Source: Phytoseiulus persimilis
Taxonomy: Eukaryota > Arthropoda > Arachnida > Mesostigmata > Phytoseiidae
Length of the DNA stretch: 64,000 nucleotides
Reading direction: 5' to 3'
Assembly: GCA_037576195.1 (NCBI GenBank)
Contig: CM075102.1
Coordinates: 39,242,745 to 39,306,744 of the forward strand
In this document: one piece after another, positions 388 through 39,900 of the stretch
Position numbering within the stretch: the stretch's first letter is position 1
Layout of the letters: every line of letters begins with the position of its first letter
Position numbers and translations under genes: made by a program
The notes under the pieces: generated by a model
What the model was told of the DNA's origin: nothing
The model's database searches: none
Seen by the model: only the letters and a program-made list of their open reading frames with translations

Positions 388-2409
388 TCAGTCGAAAGTG
401 CCATATTTCGAAGAGGAGCCCTCACAGAATAAGTCTAGCAAGCTCACGCCTTTCGCTTTCTTTGTGAAAATCTCCGCCAAGCGCGTCGAAATGTTATCAG
501 CCTTATCTTTAACCTCAAGAGTAGAACTACATTTCTTCAGGAAGGCGTCAACGAAGTTGGCGTACCTTTCATAAGCGATCGCAAGCTCTGGCAGCGTCGG
601 CATCTGTTCTGGAAGATAATGCTGCGGCGGAGGCGCCAGCGATTCATCGACGAAACCGACGATCAACTCCGTCTCGTTAGCAGATAACTTCCCCAAGGCG
701 GCTGCCCTCCTCACGTCGGTCTTGAATGACTCGAAGAATCCACTCTCGTCCGTTTGAATCAGATCCAGGAGTTTTTTTCGATATCGTTTAACGAGATCAG
801 ATTCCAGCTTCCGATAAAAACACTCGACTCGTCCGACATAACGGTCTGGTATTACGTCCACTGAACTTTGGAGGCTGTCGATCCAATTCCGGATGAAGTA
901 AACCCGCATCGTTACAACACGTTTCCAATCGTTGCGTGCGAGCCTTTCCACCAGCAGTGTGGAGGTTTCACACGTTTTCCTCTCGAATCTTCGGGATTCG
1001 AGCAAAAAATACCAGATGAGTTCATCGTCCATGATTCCACAGTGTTCGAATTGAGTCGCGTAATCACCCGATTGGGAAGTTTTCTTCACGAAGGTTGTAC
1101 ACTGCCTGGCTCGTGTAATTCTCTCACCCTCCTTCACAGTCGGGAGGATATGTTTCGAAGGACATTGCTTCCCTCCCGTTTCTGTCCTCGCATCCACCTC
1201 GAGCCGCGTTGTGAGGTTCTGGTTGAGGTTGAGGATTTTCTGCAGATCAGCCGCAGGCATCGCAACATAGGCACAGACCAGTTTTTTGACAGGTGCGAGT
1301 TGCCGCGTGATCTCTGCCAACCGTTTCTCGCACCTGGGCGCTAATCTAGATTTACGGTAAGCTATTGAAGCGACTTCTTTCCTCAAGAGGAACGAAGACA
1401 GGGAATTTCTGAGGAGGATTTCGTCGAAAACTTTTTGTATCTTCTCCGTGTGCACCCTCGATGATCTCGTGGCCAGAAGTCTGAGCTCGTTCAGATTCGC
1501 GAAGCGAGAAGAATTATACGCGATGAAGTCCGTGAGAGTCCAATCTTTTTTCGGCCCAAGTAAAACGCCTTCTCTTTGATACATTTCTATTGCGTTCACA
1601 ATCGTTAGGACTTCAACATCTTCGAGCCCGATCTGAACAGAGAATCTGCAAACGTCCTGGCTGAAAATGCGCGTGCTCAGCTCGGAAGACTTGCTCCCGA
1701 AAAACATTTTCATAATTTTAAACCTCTGGATTCCCAGAAGCAGCCACATGGTGTCATGGAGTTCGTCAGTGATGTTGGACGAAATCATTCCAACCGCGAG
1801 TCGGTGCCACTTGCTGAACCACACGTGAGCAGGCATCGGTACCGCCGGGAGTTCCGGAAAAGCGAGTCGGATACGATCACAGACGGATTTCACAAGACTC
1901 GTGTTCGCGGTTCTGGAGCTATGAACAGCTCGAGGAACGATTTCACAAAGGCCTCCCGGCATCGATTGCCTTTCAATTTCCTCGAACATTCCGAGCAGGC
2001 TCTCCGGCGTTTCTGAGATTTGCGTGAGAAGATCGTGTAGGGTGGAATTCTTCAATACCTGATACTCCAACTCCAGCTTATCCCAGTGCTCTTCGGTGAC
2101 GTCTTCAGGATCCTCCAGTTCGGGATGATCATGGAGGAGTTTCGAGGTCAAGTTTGCAATGGAATCGCGAATGAGGCTACTGGCCACAGTAGTTGCGTTA
2201 GCGAGAGCTTCCTTCGAGTAAAGTTTGAAAAAATGTAGGCTGACCCGTGAGCTGTAGTCGTATTCGCGACAGATTTTGAATCGATCTCCTTTGAATTCAT
2301 CGTGCTCAGCTTTGAGAGGCTCTAGAACGGTCCCAACCAAGCTTCTCTGATTGGTAGCACATAGTGAGGACACACATAATACCGAGAAAAGGAACACCAA
2401 GACGTTCAT
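388..2409 (-). CDS. Secreted orphan protein, 673 aa, intronless
   Basis: Single-exon gene. The N-terminus (MNVLVFLFSVLCVSSLCA) is a clear signal peptide, so the product is probably secreted or luminal. The remaining ~650 residues look mostly alpha-helical, with about a dozen cysteines and several N-glycosylation sequons, and no second hydrophobic segment that would anchor it. The ATG is the first in frame and starts the signal peptide. An AATAAA poly(A) signal lies 33-38 bases past the stop. I see no HExxH, kinase, protease or lectin motif and do not recognise the family. It shares a general look (signal peptide, long helical Cys-poor body, few or no introns) with the orphans at 10523-12596 and 24415-25267, but I could not align them and do not claim homology. 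Confidence 0.75.
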   Translation of the reverse strand: MNVLVFLFSVLCVSSLCATNQRSLVGTVLEPLKAEHDEFKGDRFKICREYDYSSRVSLHFFKLYSKEALANATTVASSLIRDSIANLTSKLLHDHPELEDPEDVTEEHWDKLELEYQVLKNSTLHDLLTQISETPESLLGMFEEIERQSMPGGLCEIVPRAVHSSRTANTSLVKSVCDRIRLAFPELPAVPMPAHVWFSKWHRLAVGMISSNITDELHDTMWLLLGIQRFKIMKMFFGSKSSELSTRIFSQDVCRFSVQIGLEDVEVLTIVNAIEMYQREGVLLGPKKDWTLTDFIAYNSSRFANLNELRLLATRSSRVHTEKIQKVFDEILLRNSLSSFLLRKEVASIAYRKSRLAPRCEKRLAEITRQLAPVKKLVCAYVAMPAADLQKILNLNQNLTTRLEVDARTETGGKQCPSKHILPTVKEGERITRARQCTTFVKKTSQSGDYATQFEHCGIMDDELIWYFLLESRRFERKTCETSTLLVERLARNDWKRVVTMRVYFIRNWIDSLQSSVDVIPDRYVGRVECFYRKLESDLVKRYRKKLLDLIQTDESGFFESFKTDVRRAAALGKLSANETELIVGFVDESLAPPPQHYLPEQMPTLPELAIAYERYANFVDAFLKKCSSTLEVKDKADNISTRLAEIFTKKAKGVSLLDLFCEGSSSKYGTFD

Positions 2410-2685
2410 CGCAGACGCGCTTGACTATGGTCTCGGGCGAGTCCACAGCATTTCTATAGCCAGAAAGTTTGCTCAGCCGAAATTCACAAGAACTGTTGGA
2501 GGGGATCGCGTGCGAGGTTGCAAATCGATCCCGGACTCGATTCCGTGCAACTGATTTTCCCGCAAGGTGTCTTAACTCAAACCGACTCTCGGATCAGATC
2601 CGAGCCGGAGACAATTGCAAGATGAACATCAACCCACTGAACAACTCAAGACAACACAAACCAAAGCTTAGTACGAGCTCCATAT

Positions 2686-2691
2686 TTTATT
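2686..2691 (-). terminator. Poly(A) signal AATAAA
   Basis: AATAAA on the minus strand about 250 bases past the stop of the activin-receptor-like ectodomain gene and before the next gene starts at 2409. It supports that this transcript ends without kinase exons. Confidence 0.6.
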
Positions 2692-2939: not shown

Positions 2940-3763
2940 TCATTTTTGCTTGATGAAAATCGAAGGCAGAGTTTTGAAGTTTGAGTTGCACATATCGCTC
3001 AAACAGCAGCAGAAAATAACTTGATGACTGCTGCTTATTTTCTGAACGATACACGCGCTCTTGCTGTCGCTCTCTTTGGCGACTCGGATGCATTGGTCGT
3101 TTTCGCCGGACTCTCTGGACCAACAGCCAGCCGATGATATCTGGAAAAATTATCAATTAGGTTGAGAAATTCATTCCTCGCGATCGTTGTCTGCCTATTG
3201 AAGTCGAAGAGGTCCCGCTCGAACGACTCGATTCATTTTTCCATGAAATGCTTCCAAGCTGCACGGATTGTTATTTCGAGAAGGAGTCCGTCCAAGAGGG
3301 GGGTGGGAATCGAATTTCTTTTAGCTCTTTTCGAGGAGCGGAGACTCGAACTCACCTTATGATTGGCAGTCTTCATGTTTTGATGGAAAACTCCGAAGCA
3401 GTAGGGAGGCGCGTTCTCCAGAGCCTCGCAAGTCTCGGTGGCGTTCTTTTGCCCAGTCATGGTTTCGTTGATGAACGAGCATTTGAACTTCTCATGGCCT
3501 CCTCCTTCTCCGGAGATGTGATTGTTCTGCGACGCGGCACAGACGAAGAACAAAGCCAGAGCCAAGATCAGTAGCCAGAGCACCATGCAGAACGTGAAGT
3601 TGTCGTTCTTAACTTTCACGCTCTTGGGGCTCGGTCTCGTTCCACGGGATTGATCAGGGAAGCGGATCTTCACTTCGGCGGGAACTCGCTCCTCCTGAGA
3701 TGGTTGCCTGTCAGCGTTCCAAGCAGGCACTCCGGCGGTTGCGTTTTTCAGATCGGCGGCCAT
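2940..3763 (-). CDS. Activin type II receptor-like ectodomain protein without kinase
   Basis: Two exons, 3356-3763 and 2940-3140, joined in phase 0 by a GTGAGT donor and a TTTTTCCAG acceptor; 202 aa. The product carries one activin type II receptor ectodomain (three-finger fold) with ten cysteines in family order: C-x7-C and YCF in exon 1, then GCW, two single cysteines, FCCC, three residues and MCN in exon 2. The FCCC..MCN..F...P ending is typical of type II receptors. The stop TGA follows 15 residues after CN, with no donor GT between, no second membrane segment and no kinase. Residues 58-77 are hydrophobic: from the first ATG they form a type II signal anchor; from Met60 (3586) they form a cleavable signal peptide (MVLWLLILALALFFVCAAS). 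Either way the ectodomain faces outward or is secreted, so a ligand-binding decoy role is likely by inference. Confidence 0.85.
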
Positions 3764-5432: not shown

Positions 5433-6324
5433 ATGTCCACCTACCGAACTCTGGCTCATAACCCCACTATGGCTCTGTGGCTCGTGTTGCTGGCGGGCCT
5501 GGCCGCCGCCCAGCGTATGTGTTTCGACCACATTTTCGGGTTTTGCTTTGACTTCAAAAAAACTGTTGAAAATAAGTTTTCCGGTTCGCACGGCGGATGC
5601 ATGTGTGATGCTACGGATTTCCCGCATCCTATTCATTTCAGTTGATGGAGATCGTCGTTCCGGTCAAGTCATTCGATGTCACACCTGCGAGGCTGATTTC
5701 TCTAGCGAGAGGTGATTATCCCCGATTTCCGTTTGTTATTAAGTGCGTCTGGTTCCATGAAATCGGAAAATCGGAAATCCCTTTCTCGTTTCTTCAGGTA
5801 CGACATAACCAATCCGTGTCTCGTTGGAGATCGCAGAGACAACAGTCGTGACCTCGCACAATGCAGCCGAAACTCTCGCTTTTGCAAGGTATGCTATTAG
5901 AAACATTGCCACATCAATTCATTCCGCCTGTTCTCCTCTGGAGGGACCCCTGGTCCACCTCCGTCTCACCAGACAGGGTCCTAATACGATGCGATATCGT
6001 TTCCAGGCTGAAGTGACGCGTCAACACGGGCTTCTCGTGTCCTTCGGTCGCAGCTGCGCCGAATTCTGTGCTCCAAATTGTGTGACCAAAGGTTTTGGAA
6101 TCGTCCGCGAGACTTGCATTTATTGCTGTTCGAACGATGCGTCGTGTAGGGAAGATATTGAGGAAAAAACGAAGGTTGTCCAACCAAGATCAACCAAGCG
6201 GAAAAACTCTACATCATTGCCTCATTCGTCAGCATGCCATCTGCTCGGGAAACCAAAGTTTCGGGAGCTCGCCCTTCTTGCTGCTGCTATCTACTCCTCA
6301 ATCCACGTGTTGCCCCGGATGTGA
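5433..6324 (+). CDS. Ly6/quiver (sleepless)-like Cys-rich surface protein
   Basis: Four exons: 5433-5514, 5642-5711, 5798-5888, 6007-6324. All have GT..AG borders and phases agree (1, 2, 0), giving 186 aa. Exon 1 encodes a signal peptide (MALWLVLLAGLAAAQ from the second Met at 5469; the first ATG at 5433 adds 12 residues). The mature part has the quiver/sleepless layout: IRCHTCEA, YDITNPC, QC, FCK, then SC..FC..NC and a closing TCIYCCSNDASC, the CC-x4-C end of a three-finger fold with the usual final Asn missing. The last ~20 residues are hydrophobic, as in a GPI-anchoring signal. Family members are GPI-anchored modulators of ion channels and receptors; that role here is inference. The four-exon layout fits the family. 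Confidence 0.82.
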
Positions 6325-9400: not shown

Positions 9401-10522
9401 CCTCGATCGTTATCGTCCTTCGACGAACGTCATCTAACGGCGCCCCAGTTTGTCTACAGCCAGCCAGGTGGACACTCTAACTTTCACAGACACGACGGTG
9501 CCCCAACGATGCTTGACTTATGACGGCTGCAAAAACTTCAAATACCTCCAAGCATATCAGCACATGGACGTGTCTCACGAAAATATCGAGACATGAATCT
9601 GGCTTCAAATATAGGACTCTTCGCCCTCACCCGGACTCGGGGACCCCTAATCACAACTTGCACCAGTTCGCAGACGCCAGTCGAGTTCGGGCACTCAGCT
9701 TTTTGAAGAGCTCGAGAGATCGACTTCGACACAGGGGCTCACGAGGGGGTGATGGGTTTATTCCTAGTGCAGCCAGAAGGTTGGAGCTTCTCGTAGTTTA
9801 TTTCATTGACAAACCCTTTCCCGATCCCTGTTGTCGGGTGGGTGGTCGAAAAATATCCCGGACGAGGGTGCATTGCGGGAGATATTGTTCAGGAAGCTGG
9901 CTCCCGCAATCGGAACGGAGCGTCCCGGGCGATCGATGATCTCCATCAGCTCTTCCCTCGCGATTCATTCGTCGGATGAATTCATTTGATCGCGAATCCT
10001 CAGAACTTGCAGATTCCGGCAATGGTTGTGTGTCCAGAGGCTTCCAGTGCCTGGGGACGAAATCTCCCAACGCCGGACCTCGCAGAGAGGATATTGCTTC
10101 CAATCCCTGCGCTCCTGCTCGACAGTTGGTTCCTCGTGAGACGGCGTCCAAGTCGGGGGAAGTTGTTCGAAGCCACGACTTTTTCGCCTAGAAAATCCCA
10201 AGGCTAAGCTGGGCTAACTCATTTGCAGCCTGCTTAAACAACGGGCTCCGTCATTGGGCATTTCGAGTCGCGCATTGTGACTCCTTATTGAGACGAGCTA
10301 AGATGCAACGCCAGGCTCCGTGAACTTTTCTCCTCCCAAGTCGTTCATGGCTCTCATTTACAGCCACAGACAGATAGACTGGGACCACCTCACTGGACAG
10401 CACGGATCACAGCAATTCCTGGGCAAATGTTAGCTTTCGTGAAAGTGTCTTCTAGCGTGTGATTCGATCTAGTTTCTCTCAACTGCAGACTGCTGTCTTG
10501 GACCACTCTCAATGTGTCGAGG
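6479..10522. other. Intergenic, no supported gene
   Basis: About 4 kb with many short overlapping frames on both strands and none backed by splice sites, signal peptide and stop together. One plus-strand stretch at 6960-7090 has a hydrophobic run (LLVCFVCPLLYGLL) and another at 8030-8130 reads as a hydrophilic C-terminal-like peptide, but neither connects to a start. The last few hundred bases should hold the promoter of the gene at 10523. Confidence 0.4.
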
Positions 10523-12596
10523 ATGCGTTGGCCGATTCTCATCCAGCTCCTGCTAGCGAGCGACGCAGCTCGAATTATAGTTGGTGACGACCATGACGAT
10601 CACAAACCGGTCATCGAATTCGACAGTGGCTCGATTCACACTCCGGCTAAGAAGGCGTCTTCGGCGGAGTCGGGTGTCAATATCAACGATCTTATCGACG
10701 CTGAAGGTGGTGCGGGGATCAGCGATGACAATGCCGGAACCGGCCCCAAAACTACGGAACATTCCACGACGAAGGAATCTGCTCCCGAACTTACAACGAT
10801 CCCGTCGTCAGACGACTCAACATCCGAATGCGCGACAGATGAAGGGCTCGAATCCCAAAGTGTGTCGACGATTGCATGGCGCCAGTCCACGACCGAAAAT
10901 TCTGCTTCTCCTTCATCAACCCAAAGTTTTGTGAATTACACAGCATCGGAATTTCCAACCAGCTTCGAAACAGTTCCGTGCTCGACCGAACTCCCTACAG
11001 GACTCCTGCAACGGAGCACTCGGCCCTTAACTGCGTGACTGGAATGCACAGAGAAGCTCTCCCGAGGTTTCTCGTGCAACGTTCGAAACCAACGATCCAA
11101 CAACAACAATACGTCCGGAATCGTATGCGGCGTCGCCCGAGTCAACCGCGGCAACATCCGTGGCCTCCAGTGAGAGTTCCACACGTTCCACATCAGCGAC
11201 TCCAGGAGAAACAACCGGAACGACTATGAAAACTCACGCAACCCTGTCGAAGTCGACCACAAAAGCTCCGACGAATACGACGCCCGGCCCTGATGAGATC
11301 ATTGTATATCTGCCCGCGCACAGGACCGATCAGGCCGTGGATCCGAACCAGCGGAGTCAAGCACGGCGTGTGGCTCCTTCTCGAGCTGTGGTAGTGCTCC
11401 GTTGCGTTCCGGCCTACGTTGTTTCCAGAAGGCGATACGACAGCTACCTCGAGCGAACGGCGGCGTCGGCGGGCCTCAAGAAGAGAACTTTCGAGAACGT
11501 TCGCAAGACTTTCCGGAAATTCGCACGGGATAGAGCATCCCTTCGCGGCGGTCCGTCGACGGTCAAAGAAGCTGACCGACTGCAAACGTACCAAACCATC
11601 AAGCAGCACTCGTTGTCGGAATGCGAGCCCTCAGAGCGAGCGAACGTCGCGCGGTTCTTCCAGAAACTGGAGGAGGATCATGACAACTCCATCCACGCAG
11701 TGCGCAACATGGCGCAGGATACAACGTCCACGCTCACCCCGTCAACACACGAGCATGTGATGGATTTCCTCAAATCAAAAAGAGCTCTGACCGTCGACGG
11801 AATCATAGTGGATCGACAGAAATGGCCACAGGTGAAGAGAGCGGCTCTGCAGAATGTTATACCGAGCAACGAAACTGCCGCTGGGGAAGCATTTTTCAAG
11901 GTCCTGGAGTCACGCCGACCCAGTCAGCGTCGACTGATCTGTGCACCCGCAGTCGGGAAATTCGCCACTCAGACATCGAAACAGAGACTTTATAATACTC
12001 TGGTCCAGTTCTACAGGCGAACGAATCTACCGAGCGCAAACTTCGAAGCTTTCATGAGGCTCTGTGAAGCGAACGCAGACATATATGAGAGCATAGTTGA
12101 GCAGGACATCGATGTTGTCAATCGGACGATCAGGCTCGCTCATATTTACGCGCGTATAAAACTCCGCACATGGAGTGACTCTCCAAACAACGAACGAAAC
12201 GCCCTGCTGCAGTTTTTCGCCGATGCTGAGCGATTCGTCATCACCACGTACGGGTCATGGCTGCTCGACAACGCCCAGAATCCTGTCAGCTTGAGATGGT
12301 CGATTTATCGGAACGCTTTGGACCGAGCGGAGGCCACAACTTTTAGATTCAACAGCACAGAAATCGCAAAACTGAGTAGACTGCTCTTGTCGGAAAATAG
12401 ATGCCTGGAAAGAATGAAGCCTTCGATGACCAGCAAGGAACTTCAGAATGGAATGGTCAGCTGCAATTGTTATTGGAATCAGGTTGTATCGACTGTTTCG
12501 GAAACATTCAACTACAGAGCGGATATCCCCATGCTTCTAGAGTATCTCCGGAGGGCTGTTTTCTTCAGGAATAACTACAAAAATTTCCTGACTTGA
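10523..12596 (+). CDS. Secreted mucin-like/helical orphan, frame broken near 11031-11036
   Basis: The start at 10523 gives a signal peptide (MRWPILIQLLLASDAA), followed by an acidic, Ser/Thr-rich stretch suited to O-glycosylation. This frame ends at TGA 11036-11038. The +1 frame opens at 11031, stays Ser/Thr-rich without a break in style (ETNDPTTTIRPESYAASPES and onward), and then runs as a ~400-residue helical domain with scattered cysteines to the stop at 12594-12596. The two halves are therefore one gene joined either by a short intron I cannot place or by a one-base frame change (mutation, polymorphism or assembly error). An AATAAA follows 61 bases after the stop. I do not recognise the helical domain. 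Confidence is high that both halves are coding and low on the exact joint. Confidence 0.65.
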
Positions 12597-17643: not shown

Positions 17644-19654
17644 TTAGTTGACGATCGTCCATCTTGTTGGTTGCTTGCAGTCGGTTTCCCCATCGGCGCA
17701 GAGTCTGTTGAAAGTAGTATCGGGAGCCCGGCCCAAGATCTCGCGTTCCTCTTGAATCCGGAACGAGAATGTCGACTCAAATGATCCTACGAACATTTCG
17801 GCCCTGGAACAGATGATCTGATCGACTATCGCGATCTGACCTTCAGTCAGTGCCGACGGAGCTGGTCGATGAGACTCGCCTGAAAGGTTTGCTTCTTTAA
17901 ACTCCACAAAAGTCGCACCATGCTGCGAGTGCTCGAAATTTCTTTGACCGGGATCGCCTAGCTCTTGACAGGCTCAGAATCAAATCGATCGAGAAGGCGT
18001 AGAATGCATCAGATGGTCGACGGATAAATAATCGGAACCCACCTTCGATGAAGTCTGCTTGCTCGCCAGGCTTGCACGTATCTCCTCCGCAGGCCATTCC
18101 GAGTTCTGTGCCATCCGAGCAATCACAGCTTTGGGGAGATTCGATCCTGCCTGTCTCAACGGCCTTGACATCCGATTTTCCCGCCAGTTGAGGTTCACCT
18201 TGGTGCTCGGACACAGAAGGGCAGCTCTTGTCAGAACAGGGCTGATCGAGTGATCGGCTGTCAGAGCACTTTGGTTCAAACTTAACATGCGATCGAGCTT
18301 TGACGCCTTTCTCCTGATCCTCGTTCTCACACTTTTCGTGACTAGTTTTAAGAACTTTTGCCTGTGCTTCCACGGCTTCGAAATTAACGTTCGATCCATC
18401 AGAGCACGAATCTGGAAACAACGAAGGCTTGCCCAAGGAAAGTTCAGGTGGCTCGCAACTTTCCGCAAACTCTTCTTTCCTGGACATGGTGCGATCCTGG
18501 TCTTCGTTGAGACAGCTTCCGCCGTTGGGTAAAATCTTCTCCTCCATCGATAGCTCCTTGAGGGTGGGGTCTTCTTCAGCTGTTCCGCAGTATCCATCCA
18601 GAGGTCGACACGGTTTGTCGAGATCACCTCGGTTTCCGGAACACTGTTTGGGAACGACACCGGGCTTAGCGACTCCTTTCGTGGAGTCCGGTCCGTCGCA
18701 GAGATCTCGGCTGGTATTTTCTATGAGATTCTGAGAGTTTTCGAATCGAACTTTGCTCCTGTGGTAGACGAGTGTTTCTGGGACTAGTTGCAGGAACTTC
18801 TCAACTTCCTTATCATCACCATCGGTAGCCAAGAAAACATTATTCAGTCCGCGGTCACGCATGATTTTTTTCACTTGTTCAGCGGCGCCCTTTATGCTCG
18901 GGACATCGTTCGGTCTGACTATGGGGAAATCGGATCGTCGCAGATGGACTGCGAGGAATTTTTCATCTCCGAATCGAGTCTTGATGAAGTATTCAGCTTC
19001 ATTTTGTAATTTTTTCGCGAAAACCATCGACCTCCGAAGTCTCCAGTACTCTTCGTCGCCGAAGCCGTCATGCAAAACGACCTCGGCGTGATCCAGCATA
19101 ACTATAGGATCTTGAGTGAAAAGAGGAGCGAGAGCGGAGCTGACTCCACTGACTTCAATACAGGTGACTCTCCGCGCTTTGACTTTCTCCTCGTTGAAGA
19201 AGTAACCTTCGTACAGACCGTTCTCGAGTTGATATCCAACACTCCGTCCACATTCTACAGTGTAGTAGCTGTCGTCCAAGCTATTGGTCAGAGGAGCATG
19301 CCTGAGTACGTAAACGTGATCGACGAGAACATCACCAACGAAATGGTCCATGAAGTCCCGGAACTCGATGACTCTTGTGTAGTTATTAAGGCTCTCGATG
19401 TCAAAGAAATTCTCCCATCTCAGACCTGAAGGACCCTTCCAATGCGGCAGAGGGCCCCAGGGGGGAAGGACAAGCGTGTAACCGACCTCCTTGGCGAACC
19501 TTGCCACCCTGAGGTAAACATCTCGTCTTAGGTTGAAGCCCTCGTTTGGACTGACATCGTACAGCAAGTATCTCTCATCCGCAGCCACCGGAACCGACAC
19601 GCATGAGATGAGCAGGTAACAGCAGATTGACACTGCGCTCACTGAGGCCACCAT
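17644..19654 (-). CDS. POFUT2: GDP-fucose protein O-fucosyltransferase 2 with large insertion
   Basis: Two exons, 18043-19654 and 17644-17879, join in phase 1 (GAAG|GTGGGT donor, CTTTCAG acceptor) to give 615 aa. POFUT2 works in the ER lumen, moving fucose from GDP-fucose to Ser/Thr in thrombospondin type 1 repeats. A signal peptide opens the protein. Family motifs follow: LLYDVSPNEGFNLRRDVY with the conserved Glu at 38, HLRRSDF at 237-243 for GDP-fucose, FLATDGDDKEV near 274, and in exon 2 IAIVDQIICSRAEMFVG, STFSFRIQEEREILG and a final TTFNRLC..DGETDCKQPTRW. The usual length is about 430 aa. The extra ~225 residues (about 312-538) form an acidic insertion with about 15 cysteines between KVRFENSQN and the C-terminal lobe. 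The insertion stays open for over 200 codons in the exon 1 frame, which argues that it is translated. Confidence 0.93.
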
Positions 19655-20487
19655 GATTCTGGTGGTGTTTCGCGATATTTCATGCAGAGCGTGATTGTGT
19701 TCTCGAACTTTCCAACGCCGGACCCTCAGGAGATCACCTCACTCAATCGCGTGCATAATCGCAGTCGACACTCCCACAAAAACACCAGAACAGGGCACTC
19801 CTAGAGTATGATCACTGCAGAAAATCGCTTTTCCGACCGGTTCGAATCGGCGCTCCGAGAAACAGCTGATGTTTTGATGACGTTGAGGTACAGCAGACTA
19901 CAGCAGCGTGGCTCTTCGATACACAAAGTTCCGGGTTCTGGTGGCTCTCTCGAGGTGCTACTTGTATGTCTGTGAGGTTGTCGTTTCTGCGCTTAGCAAT
20001 ATCTTTATTCGCGAGAACACGTTCAGAGGAGCGTTAACTTGTTGCGTCATTCCGACAGTTAAGCTGATTATCCATATAGACGAGACTCGATATTTTTTCT
20101 TCCCAATTAAGTCAGACAAGAAACAACCCGTGAACGGATCATCCTCGGAGCGACTGCGTGGAGCCGCATTTTTCAGCAATCATCAAAATCAAAGCGAGAA
20201 TTTATCGCAGATCTCTGATGGTGCACTCGACGATGTATTCCAGCCAAAGCTTCGAGTTGAACAATCGGAGCAAATTGATAGTCATCCGGATCCCAGGATC
20301 CTCCTCCGTTGCTATTGCAGTAGATCGAATCTGCCTGTCTGACCTGCTTTAGGCTCGGAACGACCGCCCACTTGAGGCCGGTGAGCGGGGGCGACACGTA
20401 GAATATAACTGTGAATGGGAATGTCAGAAAACGAATCAAGTACAATCGGTGGCTCGGTTCTTCCCCAAACCTGCCAAGTATCCGAAC
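19655..20487. promoter_or_regulatory. Shared upstream region of POFUT2 (-) and small secreted gene (+)
   Basis: About 830 bases separate the divergent starts of POFUT2 and the 20488 gene, so both promoters must lie here. I see no clear TATA box or other element. Open frames on both strands (for example plus 19908-20342) lack a signal peptide, splice sites or motif. Confidence 0.4.
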
Positions 20488-24414: not shown

Positions 24415-25267
24415 TCATTCGCTGTTGAATCCAGAGCAAACCTTTATCGAGGTCAAATGAGGCTGCTCTCGGTCCAGCCAGGAAATCAGGTCAACGACCC
24501 TTCTGTACGCAGGACAATTGGTGGTTTTATTGTACTTCTCTAGGATGTTCCGCATGTTGAACAGGTGATCTTTGACAATGTTCGGATAAGAAAATACGCT
24601 GATGTAGTTCTTTATATCATCTCTTCCGCGTCCCTGTGAATTCATCAGCAATCGGAACTCATATTTCTCCTTAGAGGCAAGGTGCTCTCAAACTATTCCG
24701 ATGTCTCCACCCGGCTAGTCTCAAGCTGTAAGTCATCTTGGAGTTCCTGAGGGAGATTGACCTCATTCTTCTCAGAGGCAACCATCCTCTGCGCCCGATT
24801 TTCCCAGAACGGCGTCGGGACGTGAGCACTACGCGAGGAGGGTCATGTTGAAAACGGAGATCCAACTTACGAAAATGTCTCGGTTGTGCTTTTCCATGGC
24901 TTCCAGGACTTTGGGACGATACTTCCAGCCGGTGCAGATGCCGGCTGCTTGAACAACCTCGCTCAGTACAGGGTGGTAAAGAACTTTCATGCGCGTGATG
25001 TTCCAAACCGATCCCAAAACATCAGTGCTCGGATCAGCTGCCCGGGCGGCTCTCCGGATGTTCTCTCTGAGCCGTTTTAACGCGTTGCCGTTCTCGAGTC
25101 GGATATTTTCCATTTGCCGTACGAGCCCGTCCGGTCCTGAGGAGTCTTCCATGGTTCGCTGCACTGCCAGAAGCCTCTTCCCATAGGTTTCCAGAACGTG
25201 AACGACTTCTTTCTCGAGCGCGGCTTTCTTCTTCGCGAAATCTTGCTGTGTTTTTCTGTTGAACATC
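24415..25267 (-). CDS. Helical secreted-type orphan protein, last two exons
   Basis: Exons 24871-25267 and 24415-24669 join in phase 0 at a GTAAGT donor and a CTCTAAG acceptor, reading HNRDIF then EKYEFRLL. The encoded ~216 residues are amphipathic helix-rich, with WNIT and YNKTT sequons and a few cysteines (ICTGW, TNCPAY, KVCSGF), which suits a secreted protein. The exon at 24871-25267 starts after a CCCCCCAG acceptor and needs two bases from an upstream exon. A candidate lies at about 25665-25876 on the same strand (helical, ending at a weak GTTAGC donor whose phase fits, or at a GC donor CAG|GCAAGT that fits only with a different acceptor near 25305). I did not find the signal-peptide exon. 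I do not recognise the family. The two-exon core is likely real; the 5' end is open. Confidence 0.6.
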
Positions 25268-28200
25268 CTGGGGGGAACAGTAGATCCGCAGCTTAGACAG
25301 AGGGGCTCTAGAATCAGACATCGCACCATTATCCGAACGATTGACAAATGGCTCAGAGACAAGCGGACTTGATGAGGAATCTCTCTTGGAAATCCCGAAT
25401 TCTACATCAGATTGATGATGACTAAGCGGAATGTTGCGTTAGACGAAGTCCGGATTCCGCGCAGTCGGACTTCTTCACGGCTCGTCGAGGAAGCTAAGAG
25501 AAGTTCCAAGATCCAAGTAGTGACGGGAATCGGAAGACGCGACGTGCTCGAGGAATTTCGCTGGCCAAGTTCATCCCGCGCCTCCATCACTCTCTCTAAC
25601 GATTCCGACGCTCAGCTGACAAGAGCACATGAAACCTTCTCACTTGCCTGGGTTCGTCGCTAACCGTGAATTCCGAGAGTGCTCGAAGAAGCTCCTCGTT
25701 TCGCTTCCACTGGAGTCAATCAAGGTATTTTCCGAGCACTTTTCCAAAACCGCGCCCAGTATCGCCTTCTCGACAACATCGAATGGCAACGTGAACGTCT
25801 CATCGTGTGCGTGCGCTCTAACAACTTCCTGAAGTACCGACCCTACCATGACCACTGCATCGATGAGCGACCCCACGAGCGGTCACCCGCTGAAATTCTC
25901 GATGAAGAGCAAGCGGTCGGCAACTTGACGCCTCAACTAACAATGAGATCCCCGGATCGCGAATTCCAGATTACGGATGGTACCTTTTGTCTCGGTGCTC
26001 GATGCTGGTATATTTGCTCCGAGAAGGGGAACTGGTCGTCTGGGAGCGCGAGCAACAGGGGATCATGGGAGGATTGCTCTCGGCATGCATAGGCTTTCCA
26101 TGAGAGGAAAAATCCATGTTTCGAGGTAAACAAAAGAGAGTGAATAAGGAGAGTGAACAAAAAAGGGGTGAATGGAGAAAGAGCGAACGACCGAAAGGAA
26201 ATACACATCCAGCTCTTCGCAAAATTTCACTTCACAGTTCTTCATGGCGGTACATCATCATTCGTCACACGCAGAGCTCAAACGCCAAAGAAATCAACAT
26301 GCTACGAGCTATCAGGATATCAAAGCTTGAAAGGAATGCCCGAGATGATCGAGAGGGCTGAAAACTTTGATTCCGAGCTCTCTTAGTTCTGAGTTGAGGT
26401 TTCAGACGTAGGTTCACGAAGAGCCTTGGATCAAGAAAAGGATTGAAGGTCGATGACGAGAGCCGGATGAGGAAGCCGGTCTCCTCGGTAGAACCCTACT
26501 CGCGTCCGAACTAAACGTTTCTGTGAGAGAAGAGTGCTTGAAGTTAGAGCGTTCCTCTCATCAGAGTCGAGCTTCAAGCGTGCAGGAATTCTCAAGAGTC
26601 GAACTCGTTTATTGCGGCTCTCATCCCCTCCTCTGCGGTATCGACAGTTATTCCTCCCGGAGCGATTCCTTGAACTATGGGCAGATGAGGCGCGAGACTC
26701 TTCTTCGTCGACGAAACGTGTTGAAAATCATCGGAAGCGTCGTTGAGCCTGAGTGGGACGCGGAGCTGCCTCTTCGCTGCGCTGGTCAAGCTCAAGAACT
26801 GCGCAGTGAATGTAATTGCAAGACGGGGTTCGCTAATAACCACTTCTCTCTTATGGCTTGATTGTTCGTTCGGAAAGAGATCATTCTCAGGAGAATGAAC
26901 GATGAAAACATCGTTTATTCTCCAGTGTACTTCGAAAGAGGCCGGACGGTTCCGCGCTCTTGAGATCGGTCCCCGTTCCCCGCTTCCAATTCCGATTGTT
27001 GAATCTTGACAACCAGGGAGTGAAACTTCTCAATATCGTATTGGGCTGACATTCCGGGGCTCAGCCCGGCGGAATTCCACCCTCTTCTGGGGGCGTTCTC
27101 TATATGTTCCTCGATCTTCTGACTGCCACACACGAAGCGCATTCCTTGATCATCGGCTTCTTTTTGATTGGTCTCCTCCTTCCATTCAATGAATCTGTGG
27201 GTGTGTAGTCACTCGTCCTGCGTTTCCAGCGATCCGTATAGAAAATTCACCTGAGTGACTCGTCATTCACGATGGATCTGTATCGGAAATTCGTTGTGGA
27301 GCGCAGCCAATCGACCTCCTAGAGTCCAAGCCACGGGGACTGACGGAGAAAAACCTCGCAGTTCCGTCATAGGGATTATTACCATTATCTCGGGATACAC
27401 GAGATGTTCCCCCTCCAATACCCTGAGAGCTTTTCCAAAGTGTCACACTCGTATGAGTTCGTCACCACACAAGTATCTCCATCCTCGACTCCATCGGGCT
27501 CCTCCGCCTCCTCAATTGTCGATGAGTATCAGCATTGCAACATCCCTGACTCAGGCGGTCGTTGTAGATGACACCGCTCGTCCACTCGCTGCCATGCCCT
27601 CCTCAATAATCAGGAAGCCAAATTCCTATGGCTGCCTACCATTTCGTGACCCTGGGTCATGTTGGGATTGCGTCCTGGGATCGTCCTGTGCCGTTCAGTG
27701 CCGGAGGACATACCAGATGGGCTTCGACAGAGCAATCTCCTGTGCGGTGTTAGAGGACGAAGCCAGGAGGCGACGGGAGCACCGAGCTTGATGTGCTAGA
27801 ATCGATGAATCATGTCATGCTAAGAGCAATGAAGTCTCCGATCCGGATCGACATCCGACGCTGCACAAGCCAAGTGGTTTAGTGATTGACGGACAGCTGG
27901 AATAAAAATTTCGATGGAAATTTTGATACACAAAAATAATTCGTTGCGGTGTGAGGTCATTGTGAACTTTCCTGGGAATCGCAAATCGAGCACCATGGAA
28001 TCGGCTCGAGATCGAATCTATTCATGGGCTAGGAGCGCTAAGCACCTGGAGGTCCTGTATTGGGTTCCTCTCATCTCTGTATCCGTTCTCCTCTCAGTCT
28101 CCTCTCGCAGAAAATCGGGGATGGGAGGGAATTATGGGCCCACCCCTATTTTTACACGTAGCTCCTGAACGATACGTCCAAATGAGCTCGTGATTGGATT

Positions 28201-35075: not shown

Positions 35076-36980
35076 TCATCGAGTATTGAGCGAATGTGTC
35101 ATCACTTCACCGATCATAACGATGATGGACAAGAGGATACCCCCCGCGCACGCTTTCAGGGCGCTTTTTATCGATGACGAACGAACAGTGAACTTGTCGT
35201 CCCACATTTCACGATAGAGTTTGATCATTTCCATGCGAGCCGCTGGGAGGTGGGCCTCTCCTGCTGTCCACTCGACTTTGTGCAATGAACGATATCTATT
35301 CAAGCGCAGCTTGTGTATCAGACCGTTGCGTAGAACGAAGTTGACAGCGGCTGGCAGATACTCATCGAATCTGAATCGAAAGCGGCCATCGGTGGCTACT
35401 TCCATGAGGATCCACCAGTTTTTAGTCGGGTCTCCTCTGGATTCCGCCAGAGTTCGCAACTCCACTCGCATGCCAGAAAAGAGCGAGCTCTCCAAAAGTT
35501 CCCATACTCTGGCCGGACAGCAAAAAGCCCCTCGCTCGAGAAAATTCAAGAAAAACTCGCCAGTCGATGAAAAATATTGGAGATAGCTTGCTCGGATGAC
35601 TCCGTTCAGCGGCTTTCGCTGCGACAGTATTTCCGCAATACACGCCTCATCGCACGCTGCGCCGATCATGGGATAGAAACCACATTCGACCTTCCCGTTG
35701 TAACCGTCGGAGATTGTCGTTTGGAGCATTGCGCATAGGTCTGACGCAACGCTCAGTCGGATTATTTGGATCGAGAGCATGAAGACACCCGATGAAAAGA
35801 AGGTGACCGGAGCGAAGTTTCTCGGCAACTTATTGCATAACCCCACGCGAATGGACGAGCAAACCGCCGAGCACCGATTCACGAATTCCTCAACGACCAG
35901 TATGAGAACGGGGCCTACGTGGCGTCCGTCTGGACCCTCATGGTTGTTTCCAGCCTGCAGTCTGAATTGGAGCACATCCACAACAGCGCCGAGAACACAG
36001 AGGATTGCGAATGTGATGAGTCCATGTTTGGATTGGACATTGGACTCCCAAGAGTTGGTTACTATTGTGACGAAGTCCCACCGACGTACTTCGACCACGA
36101 AGCTGGAATGTAGCACTCGGTTTCTGAGGCGGAGACGAGTGGGTTCGTTTTCGAGGTTTTCGTAAAACTCAACACTCACTCTGTAGGAGGAATTCCTCGA
36201 GACGAAAAGGATCTCATCCCGGTCGATGACCAGATCACCCACTCTGCGGATGAAGTCGGGGTCGCTGATGTCGTCGCTCACTCCGAAAGCCTCGCTGGTA
36301 TACTGTGGGAATTTGGGCGTTGAATGGGTCAGCCCCTTGACGGTTGCGTCGAGTTTCATGCCGAAAACATTCGATAGAAGCGGAAATTCCAACAATTCAA
36401 CATCGTCAAGACTCCAGATTACGGCAGCATAGCCATCACTGCCTTGTCGTAGTTGATTCCGTCGTATGCACGAGAGAATTTCCCCACTCGACGCTGTCGG
36501 AGAGTGTTGTCCTCCTCCAGTCCAAAAGAAGCGCACGTGCAGGGAGTGAGAGAATCCCGGAAACGCGCTTTCCATAGAAAGAAATTGCCGGTCAAGATCC
36601 GCGCATTCCAGCGCAACCAGTCTCTCGGCCAGGCTGGAGACCGCTTTTGCCAACCAGAGATTCTCGTTGCGATACTTTCCATCGGACAGCAAGGTCACAG
36701 TCACTTCCATTGGACGAGTTACTCTATCGTTGCTGATGACGCAGTTACCGGTGGAGATCGTGAAATGCCTCATGGTCAACCGGCGGTGGATCTCTTGGAG
36801 GATATCATTCAAAATCTGGCCAGAGAGCTCGATTGGGGCATTTCTCGGAAGAGGATCACGAGGACACTGGCCGCAGCAGCCGTTGGGTGACGAGGCTGCA
36901 TTTACACGGAGTGCTTTTCCAAGTAGATGACAAATCACCATGAAGAACATTGTATGGTGTTTTTCAGAGTAGAAATGCAT
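35076..36980 (-). CDS. Divergent ionotropic-receptor-like membrane protein, intronless
   Basis: One uninterrupted 634-codon frame. Residues 11-29 (MFFMVICHLLGKALRVNAA) read as a signal peptide, so Met11 at 36950 may be the true start. The layout fits the ionotropic glutamate receptor-like (IR) chemoreceptors of protostomes: a long extracellular N-terminal half with paired cysteines, a membrane helix at ~319-341, a short linker and weakly hydrophobic pore-like stretch, a second strong helix at ~392-415, about 190 extracellular residues with cysteines, and a last helix at ~607-630 followed by a very short tail. The glutamate-binding Arg/Asp residues of true iGluRs are not evident, as is common in divergent IRs. 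If correct it is a ligand-gated cation channel subunit at the surface of sensory cells. The call rests on topology and length, not on a diagnostic motif. Confidence 0.45.
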   Translation of the reverse strand: MHFYSEKHHTMFFMVICHLLGKALRVNAASSPNGCCGQCPRDPLPRNAPIELSGQILNDILQEIHRRLTMRHFTISTGNCVISNDRVTRPMEVTVTLLSDGKYRNENLWLAKAVSSLAERLVALECADLDRQFLSMESAFPGFSHSLHVRFFWTGGGQHSPTASSGEILSCIRRNQLRQGSDGYAAVIWSLDDVELLEFPLLSNVFGMKLDATVKGLTHSTPKFPQYTSEAFGVSDDISDPDFIRRVGDLVIDRDEILFVSRNSSYRVSVEFYENLENEPTRLRLRNRVLHSSFVVEVRRWDFVTIVTNSWESNVQSKHGLITFAILCVLGAVVDVLQFRLQAGNNHEGPDGRHVGPVLILVVEEFVNRCSAVCSSIRVGLCNKLPRNFAPVTFFSSGVFMLSIQIIRLSVASDLCAMLQTTISDGYNGKVECGFYPMIGAACDEACIAEILSQRKPLNGVIRASYLQYFSSTGEFFLNFLERGAFCCPARVWELLESSLFSGMRVELRTLAESRGDPTKNWWILMEVATDGRFRFRFDEYLPAAVNFVLRNGLIHKLRLNRYRSLHKVEWTAGEAHLPAARMEMIKLYREMWDDKFTVRSSSIKSALKACAGGILLSIIVMIGEVMTHSLNTR

Positions 36981-39900
36981 GAGCTCGGCCGTGGGTCAGT
37001 CGCCTCGGTCGCCCAACCGACTTTTCTGATAAACATCACTCGGCCAGGCGGTCACATCCCAATCACATTCGGCTGCGTTTCGATCATGGAGGCGAACGGA
37101 ATGGGTTCGGGCTGGATGATGGCACTCGAAGGCGAGTTCAGCGGTAACAAACAAACATGGGACGAAATGCGGAACGGCGGAGAGACACCGTTCGACACGG
37201 TACTCCGGACAGCTGCGAGAGATCCTCATGAAATTGGAAATTTAGGAAGAACTCAGAAACTGCAACGCCGTGCTGGTCGAGCCCACGTTCCCGAGCTGCT
37301 ACGTGCTGTGACGCGATTCCTTCAAAGGGAAGCTGTTGCTTGGGGCGAAGTTCCGTACCAGAACGATTGAATTCAGCTGTGATGCTCAATCAACCGAATG
37401 TCCGCAGCGAATAATGAGCCTTTGTTCAATGTCATGGGGCAAACTGCGATGCGATTCGTCACCTGGCTGCATTGAGAGAACTTCACCTCATGATCGGAAA
37501 TGGCTGAGCTGACCTCCTGTGCCATTCGTTGCAGCTCCTACCTCGGGACAAAGTCTGCGACACATGTGCAGCCCCTCTGACAGCCACGTGGTGGCCGCAC
37601 GCCACATTTCCGCTCAGGCGCGCGTGTGAGGAAAAGTTGCGAGTTGCTGAAGGGCTTCCTCCGAAGCCTGCGCAGGCGCCAGCTGATACATGTTTTCGGA
37701 AGCTGCTGCCACGTTTTGAACCTCGATGTAGTTGAAACGGCTGATTCGGGAGACGGATCTTGCTCCCGGTGAACATAAATACTCTGAGAGCTGTTTCCCA
37801 GCGGCCGCACAGATGAGGGCTTGGTTCAGGATAACGAATTCTGTCTCTTTTTGTCAGCGTCGGTGTGCGATAAATGTAACCTTTGTCCTGGTCACGGGAA
37901 TCAATAGATAACCATAACCATAACGGTCAGTGAGCGTCATCCATTTTGACCTAATAAAATTTCTCGCATCATGCAAGAACGGATTCGCATCAAAACAACT
38001 CAATTCTTGTTCGACTCGCAAGTCGGGCGTGGGGAGTTATGGAACGCCTGGAAAGTTGGAAATTTGATCACAATCCCAGATCGTCGAAGCCACCTAGCGA
38101 TTTTCCCTCAAAACTCTCGAGTAGTGGAGTGCGCTTATCTCCATGGACAGAATCGTATTTCCGACAAGACGGTTACTGAGGCGACATCGATTCTCGAGCT
38201 CGAAACGGATCGCCGCTTCTCTCCTGAGTTCGTGATTGTTAGGAACGGAACATCCCGAAGACTGCGGGTTGACAATCATCCCGATGTAACGATAACAGAG
38301 GAGTGATTGAGTATGATAGTGATTTCACAAGTATGATATTGATAATTCCAAACGACCTTCCGCTCCTCTCCGGGACCCGGGAGCAGTCGGATTACGCGCG
38401 CGAGTCTGTGATATAGATTCCTGGATAGCTCGTAGCAAATCACCCGCACGTAACTTCGCAACATGAGGTGCGCGAGAACCTCACGCCCTTCCGTCCAGTT
38501 TGAGATCCCGCTTTCACCAGATTTGCTTCGTACATGAGTTTGTCTCCGGAACCCCTCCATCACACAGATGATTGACATCAAAGCATTCGACATACAGGGT
38601 GACAAATGATTGTGATTGGAAAATGGTGATTGGATAAAGTAATTGATTGTTACCATGCACCCGCAGTCGTGGGCTGCCACCCTGCGTGAATTTTCATCTG
38701 GATCTATCCGTCGAGTCCCTTTCGCGGTGATATTTCCTCACAGGGCAGTAAATGCGACATTGCTCGATTTCTTCATATACCAAAGCATCCAGTGTCCGAC
38801 GCTCTCCGGCGGTTCACGGAGCTCGGCCACGACGGGAGGAGATAGGGAACAAGTCCGGCAGAAACGCACGGTCCCAATGAGGGGCATGGCCCGTGGAATC
38901 AAAGCCAATCGTGGAAAAGCGCGGCTGGTAGCCAAGAAAAATCTAGGACTGCCCGTTCGCTACTGAGGGCGTTAAACTTTACCCCGCTATGCATAAGCTC
39001 AAATCATGGATGGATCCAACGAGAAGTTTCAGAGGGCTCTATTTCTATAGAGCTGAATAGGTTATGGTTGTCCGAGTGCTGCGGCGAATGATGCTGCGAG
39101 GATGATCAATGAGCAGGTCGTGGAGATCCGTGAAAGGGAGAAATGATGAGGCTCTGTCCCGAAATGGAATTGGATAAGAATGAAGGAGAGACTCCTCGAA
39201 AGATTCGGTTGCGCCCATTTTCCGTGGAACTCTTCACCGAAGTCCCAACGGCTCTCTGAGAAAATCAATCTGACCCACTCAGAAATACAAGGAGTAGACC
39301 TTTGAGCGCCTTTGCCGCCCTCGTGAATCATCATGAACTGGTTCGCAAAGACGAGATATCTGCGAGTGGTCAAAGTGGTGACTAATTGACGAGGCATCCC
39401 GTTCCAAAATGAAAGGACTTCATTGGGTTTCATACAGCTGGGCGGGAAATGTAAGGTCTCCTTCCTGGGTCTTGAACCTGGCTTCCGCACAACGATTGTT
39501 TATTGATCCGAGCCACGATCCGTCGCGAACTTGATCCGATCAGTTGAGAGTGCATAGTGCCGCCCAAGTCGACAGATTGCCCTGTCCGCGTCACTTAACC
39601 TTGGGAAAGCGGTAGTGGAGAAAAACGGTTTATTTGGGGCTCGATCGAGTCCCAACTCGACGCTTCGAAACAGTGAAATAATGATCTAGCTCACTCAGCT
39701 CCAACTCCATGAATTGAGTCGATGAGAAGGAGCGGTCATCATAGCTGAGAAGAGAGTCACGTTGAGAGAGATATTTGCTCTCATTAGGGCAGTCGAACGA
39801 GAAGCTCCCTAGGAAGCCCGAGCGTTACGAGTTCAATGTCTGTAATGGGATAAGTCACGAACTCGCTGTTCCTGTTGCAAGGAACTGGACTGAAGGGATT

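What the first reader, a model, noticed from the sequence alone, without database searches (positions are those of the whole stretch)
2940..3763. Kinase-less activin type II receptor ectodomain as a stand-alone gene
The two exons rebuild a complete ten-cysteine ActRII-type ectodomain (GCW, FCCC-x3-MCN and the following F...P), yet translation stops 15 residues after the last cysteine. There is no donor before the stop, no second membrane helix and no kinase before the next gene, and a poly(A) signal follows. Known soluble or truncated TGF-beta pathway receptors either come from alternative splicing or, like BAMBI, keep a membrane helix after the ectodomain. Here a dedicated gene seems to make a secreted form, or one anchored in reverse by its N-terminal hydrophobic segment, suggesting a decoy for activin/BMP/myostatin-type ligands.
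Basis: partly seen in the sequence, partly recalled or inferred. Interest (0 to 1): 0.82.

Follow-up and report, generated by a model that had tools for sequence, protein, structure and literature searches.

The report
Kinase-less activin-type receptor ectodomain gene
A small two-exon animal gene appears to encode only the ligand-catching outer domain of an activin/BMP type II receptor, with no signalling kinase, so it may act as a natural growth-factor decoy; expression and binding are untested.

Summary
On the minus strand, exon 3763-3356, a 215-bp GTGAGT...CAG intron and exon 3140-2940 give an intact 202-aa frame with a ten-cysteine ectodomain. The ectodomain passes Pfam's Activin_recp cut-off (22.2 vs 20.9 bits); the whole protein falls just short (20.1). 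In the PDB, 18 of 19 listed sequences are activin/BMP type II receptors. The junction scores 34.6 bits; the best spliced frame elsewhere in the window scores 7.8. Translation stops 15 residues after the last cysteine; no hydrophobic segment follows and no kinase was detected in the 64 kb. The single membrane segment is N-terminal, with charges favouring cytosolic N-terminus and outside C-terminus. Both ActRIIB binding hot spots are kept (Trp60 as Trp, Tyr42 as Phe).

Best reading: a dedicated, kinase-less type II-receptor paralogue, secreted or reverse-anchored, that binds activin/BMP-like ligands and blocks receptor recruitment. The frame, domain and missing kinase are shown; expression, topology, binding and inhibition are inferred. 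No whole genome is held, so paralogues, orthologues and transcripts could not be checked; a decayed or lineage-private gene fragment remains possible.

The parts
3356..3763 (-). Exon 1: Met1 (A at -3, G at +4), 55-residue hydrophilic leader, hydrophobic segment (residues about 56-76), first half of the ectodomain (cysteines 1-3)
   Evidence: in-frame TAG two codons upstream of Met1
3141..3355 (-). Intron, 215 bp, AAG|GTGAGT ... TTTTTCCAG|A
   Evidence: best of 3738 spliced frames in the window
2940..3140 (-). Exon 2: second half of the ectodomain (GCW, FCCC-x3-MCN, NF...P), stop TGA 15 residues after the last cysteine
   Evidence: found on its own by tblastn with the ACVR2A ectodomain, E 2.4e-5
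3536..3598 (-). Codons of the hydrophobic segment, residues 56-76: signal-anchor or long signal peptide; net charge of the 15 residues before it +3, after it -2
   Evidence: coordinates computed from residue numbers
2686..2691 (-). AATAAA poly(A)-signal hexamer, about 250 nt past the stop

Best explanation
A stand-alone gene, derived from an activin/BMP type II receptor, that has kept the ligand-binding three-finger ectodomain and lost (or never received) the membrane helix and kinase that normally follow it. A single N-terminal hydrophobic segment carries the domain to the outside of the cell, either as a secreted protein after cleavage or as a type II (N-in, C-out) membrane protein. There it would cover the knuckle site of activin/BMP/myostatin-like dimers and so keep them from the kinase-bearing type II receptors: a decoy or pseudoreceptor. 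Shown by sequence: intact frame, consensus splice sites, ten-cysteine type II-like domain, retained hot-spot residues, no following helix, no kinase detected in the 64 kb. Inferred: transcription, topology, ligand binding, inhibition.
For: Pfam Activin_recp 22.2 bits vs cut-off 20.9 for the ectodomain. 18 of 19 PDB sequences listed are ActRIIA/ActRIIB/BMPR2 (each list also holds one unrelated chain). All ten cysteines align with ACVR2A in the HMMER alignment. The two hot spots of ActRIIB named in PMC1802081 (passages read), Trp60 and Tyr42, correspond to Trp143 and Phe123; Phe is what ActRIIA has there, and the paper expects no effect of that change. Val81 corresponds to Val177. Splice control, shuffles, codon usage. 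No kinase: best tblastn hit of the ACVR2A kinase in the window has E 0.54, against 2.4e-5 for the ActRIIA ectodomain. One N-terminal hydrophobic segment with +3/-2 flanks.
Against: The whole 202-aa protein is just under the Pfam cut-off (20.1 vs 20.9) and identity is only 23-32%. Of the six core interface residues of ActRIIB, three differ: Leu61 to Ser (Ser also in BMPR2), Val55 to Ser, Lys56 to Ser (my reading of the alignment). The segment between cysteines 4 and 6 is longer than in the four references (10 and 12 residues between cysteines, vs 6 and 5 in ActRIIA/B, 9 and 4 in BMPR2). No transcript, no orthologue and no genome, so conservation as a coding gene is untested. The left end of the window is only 2.9 kb away.
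Confidence: 0.5

Rival explanations
1. A relic: a partial duplicate of a type II receptor gene that lost its 3' exons and is neutral or not expressed.
For: Only the two ectodomain exons are left; no relative was found to show conservation; the stop follows soon after the domain, where the ectodomain exon of receptor genes could be expected to end (recalled for human BMPR2; a paper search for its exon limits, listed 2 papers, neither opened).
Against: 202 uninterrupted codons, consensus donor and acceptor, all ten cysteines and the two hot-spot positions intact, gene-like codon usage, and a poly(A) hexamer.
Confidence: 0.22
2. A kinase-less type II-like protein that helps rather than blocks: a co-receptor or carrier that presents ligand, or a domain whose partner is not a TGF-beta ligand.
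For: The domain is remote from known receptors and three of six core interface positions differ (alignments); a three-finger fold is widely reused. A membrane-anchored form would sit on the receptor-bearing cell.
Against: The hot-spot pair Trp/Phe is kept, and in the known complexes this site is the one that the signalling type II receptors need (PMC1802081, passages), so occupancy should compete.
Confidence: 0.13
3. The 5' part, or a short isoform, of a full-length receptor gene whose kinase exons lie beyond window position 1, with the ORF at 388-2424 inside an intron.
For: Only 2.9 kb of downstream sequence is visible; [quoted passage not shown]
Against: Exon 2 has no GTRAG-type donor and no GT after the last cysteine codon; the leader of 55 residues before the hydrophobic segment is unlike a receptor signal peptide; a same-strand gene with its own signal-like start intervenes; no kinase was found.
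Confidence: 0.08
4. A Ly6/uPAR-type three-finger protein that only resembles a receptor ectodomain, or a chance reading frame.
For: Both folds are three-finger; a Ly6-like gene lies next door.
Against: Pfam gives Activin_recp and not UPAR_LY6 at E<=1; 18 of 19 PDB hits are type II receptors; splice and shuffle controls.
Confidence: 0.07

Closest known systems
Activin type II receptors (ACVR2A, ACVR2B; Punt in insects) and BMPR2 (Wit in insects)
   Same: Ten-cysteine ectodomain with GCW and FCCC-x3-xCN motifs, hot-spot Trp and Phe
   Different: No membrane helix after the domain, no kinase; hydrophobic segment preceded by a 55-residue leader; longer segment between cysteines 4 and 6
BAMBI pseudoreceptor
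   Same: Receptor-like ectodomain without a kinase; inhibition is the proposed role. BAMBI exists in arthropods: shrimp (PMC11011141) and Nasonia (PMC4218986), passages read
   Different: BAMBI resembles type I receptors and has signal peptide, ectodomain, then a membrane helix; here the ectodomain is type II-like and nothing hydrophobic follows. Pfam showed no BAMBI family at E<=1
Soluble type II receptor isoforms such as human TbetaRII-SE
   Same: Secreted ligand-binding ectodomain of a type II receptor that antagonises the pathway (PMC8461249, abstract and passages)
   Different: That one is a splice variant of the full receptor gene; here the window shows a separate two-exon gene
ActRIIA-Fc and ActRIIB-Fc ligand traps (recalled, no call)
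   Same: Ectodomain-only binding of activin/BMP ligands
   Different: Engineered drugs, not genes of an animal

Membership tests
Activin_recp domain family (PF01064) | Score at or above the curated cut-off | tested here: met
   Ectodomain alone 22.2 vs 20.9 bits. The full 202-aa protein gives 20.1, just below, so the membership is marginal by Pfam's own rule for whole proteins
TGF-beta-family type II receptor | Type II ectodomain with ten conserved cysteines | tested here: met
   All ten aligned with ACVR2A in the HMMER alignment; 18 of 19 PDB sequences listed are type II receptors
TGF-beta-family type II receptor | Membrane helix C-terminal to the ectodomain | tested here: not met
   Hydropathy scan; stop 15 residues after the last cysteine
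TGF-beta-family type II receptor | Cytoplasmic Ser/Thr kinase | tested here: not met
   Not in the frame; best kinase hit in the whole window E 0.54 by tblastn and 0.44 by phmmer of 1753 ORFs. The genome outside the window was not searched
BAMBI pseudoreceptor | BAMBI-type (type I-like) ectodomain | tested here: not met
   No BAMBI family at E<=1 in Pfam; no type I receptor ectodomain among the PDB hits (the one chain with type I sequence is an ActRIIB-ALK4 fusion matched over its ActRIIB part)
BAMBI pseudoreceptor | Signal peptide, ectodomain, then membrane helix | tested here: not met
   No helix after the domain; layout of BAMBI from passages of PMC11011141
Ly6/uPAR proteins | UPAR_LY6 profile match | tested here: not met
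   No UPAR_LY6 match at E<=1 for this protein
Soluble or membrane decoy receptor (works like) | Binds ligand and lowers signalling | not testable with these tools
   Only the retained hot-spot residues bear on it

The most novel reading that the evidence does not exclude
A dedicated, evolutionarily maintained type II-branch pseudoreceptor: the activin/BMP type II ectodomain separated from its kinase and hung from the cell surface in the reverse (type II, N-in/C-out) orientation or secreted, a natural counterpart of engineered ActRII ligand traps and a type II-side analogue of BAMBI.
Probability: 0.28. Interest if true: 0.75.

Novelty: new variant of a known kind. Interest (0 to 1): 0.52.

Why it matters
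Extracellular control of activin/BMP/myostatin signals sets growth, patterning and muscle mass. Known receptor-derived inhibitors are splice forms, shed ectodomains or BAMBI, which is type I-like. A separate gene for a bare type II ectodomain would show that evolution made the same ligand trap that drug designers built, and a reverse-anchored form would test whether a type II ectodomain can bind its ligand when tethered from the other end.

Tried and rejected
Whole-genome search for the domain and for full-length receptors: no genome is held for the window. Relatives by protein in genome contigs (30 pattern matches, none confirmed) and by alignment in viral contigs (139 matches, none confirmed) and genome contigs (31 matches, none confirmed): nothing; these collections hold prokaryotes and viruses, so this says nothing about animals. 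NCBIfam: no match. Rfam at gathering scores and ARAGORN: nothing in the window. A bacterial promoter/terminator scan of 2600-2700 has no bearing on an animal gene.

The unspliced exon 1 frame gives a weak SARAF match (16.7 bits, cut-off 30.8) that runs into the intron; rejected as chance. Exon 2 alone gives weak Herpes_UL52 and MORF matches below their cut-offs; rejected. I first thought the protein might be closer to BMPR2 (GCWS, SxDxCNxNF), and identity is highest to BMPR2 (32%), but PDB scores favour ActRIIA (23.6 vs 17.5 bits); left open.

Paper searches listed no stand-alone ectodomain-only type II receptor gene among the rows shown; one search was swamped (4,133 papers, 15 listed) and most subscription journals are not in the library, so this is not proof of absence. 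PMC3169577 (passages) describes a complete kinase receptor set in a ctenophore and no kinase-less type II gene in the passages seen. PMC12203974 passages held nothing of this kind.

Full report
What is there. The minus strand of 2940-3763 holds a two-exon gene model. Exon 1 (3763..3356) starts at an ATG with A at -3 and G at +4, two codons after an in-frame TAG. It ends AAG|GTGAGT. The 215-bp intron ends TTTTTCCAG, and exon 2 (3140..2940) runs in frame to TGA. The product has 202 residues: a 55-residue hydrophilic leader, one hydrophobic segment (about 56-76), a short linker, and a ten-cysteine domain that starts at Cys95 and ends at Cys187, followed by 15 residues. AATAAA lies at 2691-2686. 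The next gene on the strand starts 530 nt past the stop (first Met at 2409).

Is it more than chance? I built a profile from four vertebrate type II ectodomains (ACVR2A human and mouse, ActRIIB, BMPR2) and scored every spliced frame that simple donor and acceptor patterns allow in the window, both strands: 459 donors, 2909 acceptors, 3738 frames. Shuffling the ectodomain gave 0 of 3000 at or above the real 35.2 bits, and 0 of 3000 with the cysteines held in place (maximum 25.0), so the match is not cysteine spacing alone. Codon usage in the proposed frame (0.100) equals that of the five long ORFs used for training (0.062-0.100), and 0.54% of 5000 random windows score as high. The intron's own first frame scores 0.049, so this test is supportive rather than sharp.

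What family? Pfam finds Activin_recp in the ectodomain above its cut-off (22.2 vs 20.9), and just below it when the whole protein is given (20.1). Against the PDB, 18 of 19 listed sequences are activin or BMP type II receptors and one is unrelated, in each of two searches. All ten cysteines align with ACVR2A in the HMMER alignment; in the MAFFT alignment eight of the ten columns are invariant, cysteine 5 being misplaced and cysteine 1 absent from the truncated ActRIIB row. Identity is 27, 32 and 23% to ACVR2A, BMPR2 and ActRIIB. Whether it is an ActRII or a BMPR2 relative is open: PDB scores favour ActRIIA, identity favours BMPR2.

Can it bind? The binding surface of ActRIIB for BMPs and activin is dominated by Trp60 and then Tyr42, with secondary hydrophobic residues around them (PMC1802081, passages read). 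The alignment puts Trp143 and Phe123 at these places. ActRIIA also has Phe at 42, and the paper expects no effect. Val81 is kept as Val177; Leu61, Val55 and Lys56 are all Ser here, of which only the first is shared with BMPR2. So the core is kept and the rim has changed, which leaves binding plausible and specificity unknown.

What is missing? No hydrophobic segment follows the domain. A search of the whole window with the human ACVR2A kinase gave nothing better than E 0.54 by tblastn and 0.44 by phmmer over 1753 stop-to-stop ORFs, where the ACVR2A ectodomain finds exon 2 at 2.4e-5 and 1.7e-5. Exon 2 contains 11 GT dinucleotides, by eye none followed by RAG and none between the last cysteine codon and the stop. 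The kinase could only lie beyond position 1, past another gene; the rest of the genome could not be searched.

Topology. The 15 residues before the hydrophobic segment carry +3, the 15 after it -2, which by the positive-inside rule (recalled) puts the N-terminus in the cytosol and the cysteine domain outside. The segment is long for a signal peptide and the leader longer still, which favours a signal-anchor; but an in-frame Met60 at the start of the segment, and a V-C-A motif at its end, would allow a secreted form. Both leave the domain outside the cell. None of this was tested with a topology predictor.

How it most likely works. A free or reverse-anchored type II ectodomain would cover the knuckle site of a TGF-beta-family dimer and prevent recruitment of a signalling type II receptor. 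That is how soluble type II receptor forms act: human TbetaRII-SE, a splice form, antagonises its ligands (PMC8461249, abstract and passages). Truncated, kinase-less type II receptors are also known as dominant negatives (recalled). I put 0.5 on decoy, 0.22 on relic, 0.13 on a helper or other partner, 0.08 on a short isoform of a longer gene, and 0.07 on a misread family.

Against the known. BAMBI is the known kinase-less receptor-like gene and occurs in arthropods (shrimp, PMC11011141; Nasonia, PMC4218986; passages). It is type I-like and has a membrane helix after its ectodomain, which was tested and not met here. As a type II receptor the gene fails two defining features (helix, kinase). 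It is therefore best described as a type II-receptor-derived ectodomain gene: a new variant of a known kind, soluble or pseudo-receptors. My paper searches showed no such stand-alone type II gene in the rows listed, which is weak evidence because the library is partial.

The animal is not named. That it is an animal follows from the domain and from a POFUT2-like gene in the same window; I could not identify the species.

Noticed in passing
5433-6324 (+): Divergent neighbour, about 1.7 kb head to head: four exons (5433-5514, 5642-5711, 5798-5888, 6007-6324) give a 186-aa, cysteine-rich protein with a signal-like start and a hydrophobic tail like a GPI signal; Ly6-like by eye, only E 0.49 to UPAR_LY6 and E 0.98 to GPIHBP1 in the PDB. 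Two three-finger-type genes may share one promoter region.
   Followed up: partly
388-2424 (-): Single-exon ORF, 678 aa stop to stop (673 from its first Met), signal-like start, no Pfam match at E<=1. Other long ORFs without Pfam match at 10463-11038, 11031-12596, 24829-25401 and 35076-36995; the four compared with each other (388, 11031, 24829, 35076) show no similarity.
   Followed up: partly
17897-19738 (-): POFUT2-like O-fucosyltransferase (PF10250, 9.1e-33; POFUT2 in the PDB, 4.8e-52) whose open frame goes on for more than 250 residues of cysteine-rich, low-similarity sequence after the matched part (about residue 326-336).
   Followed up: partly
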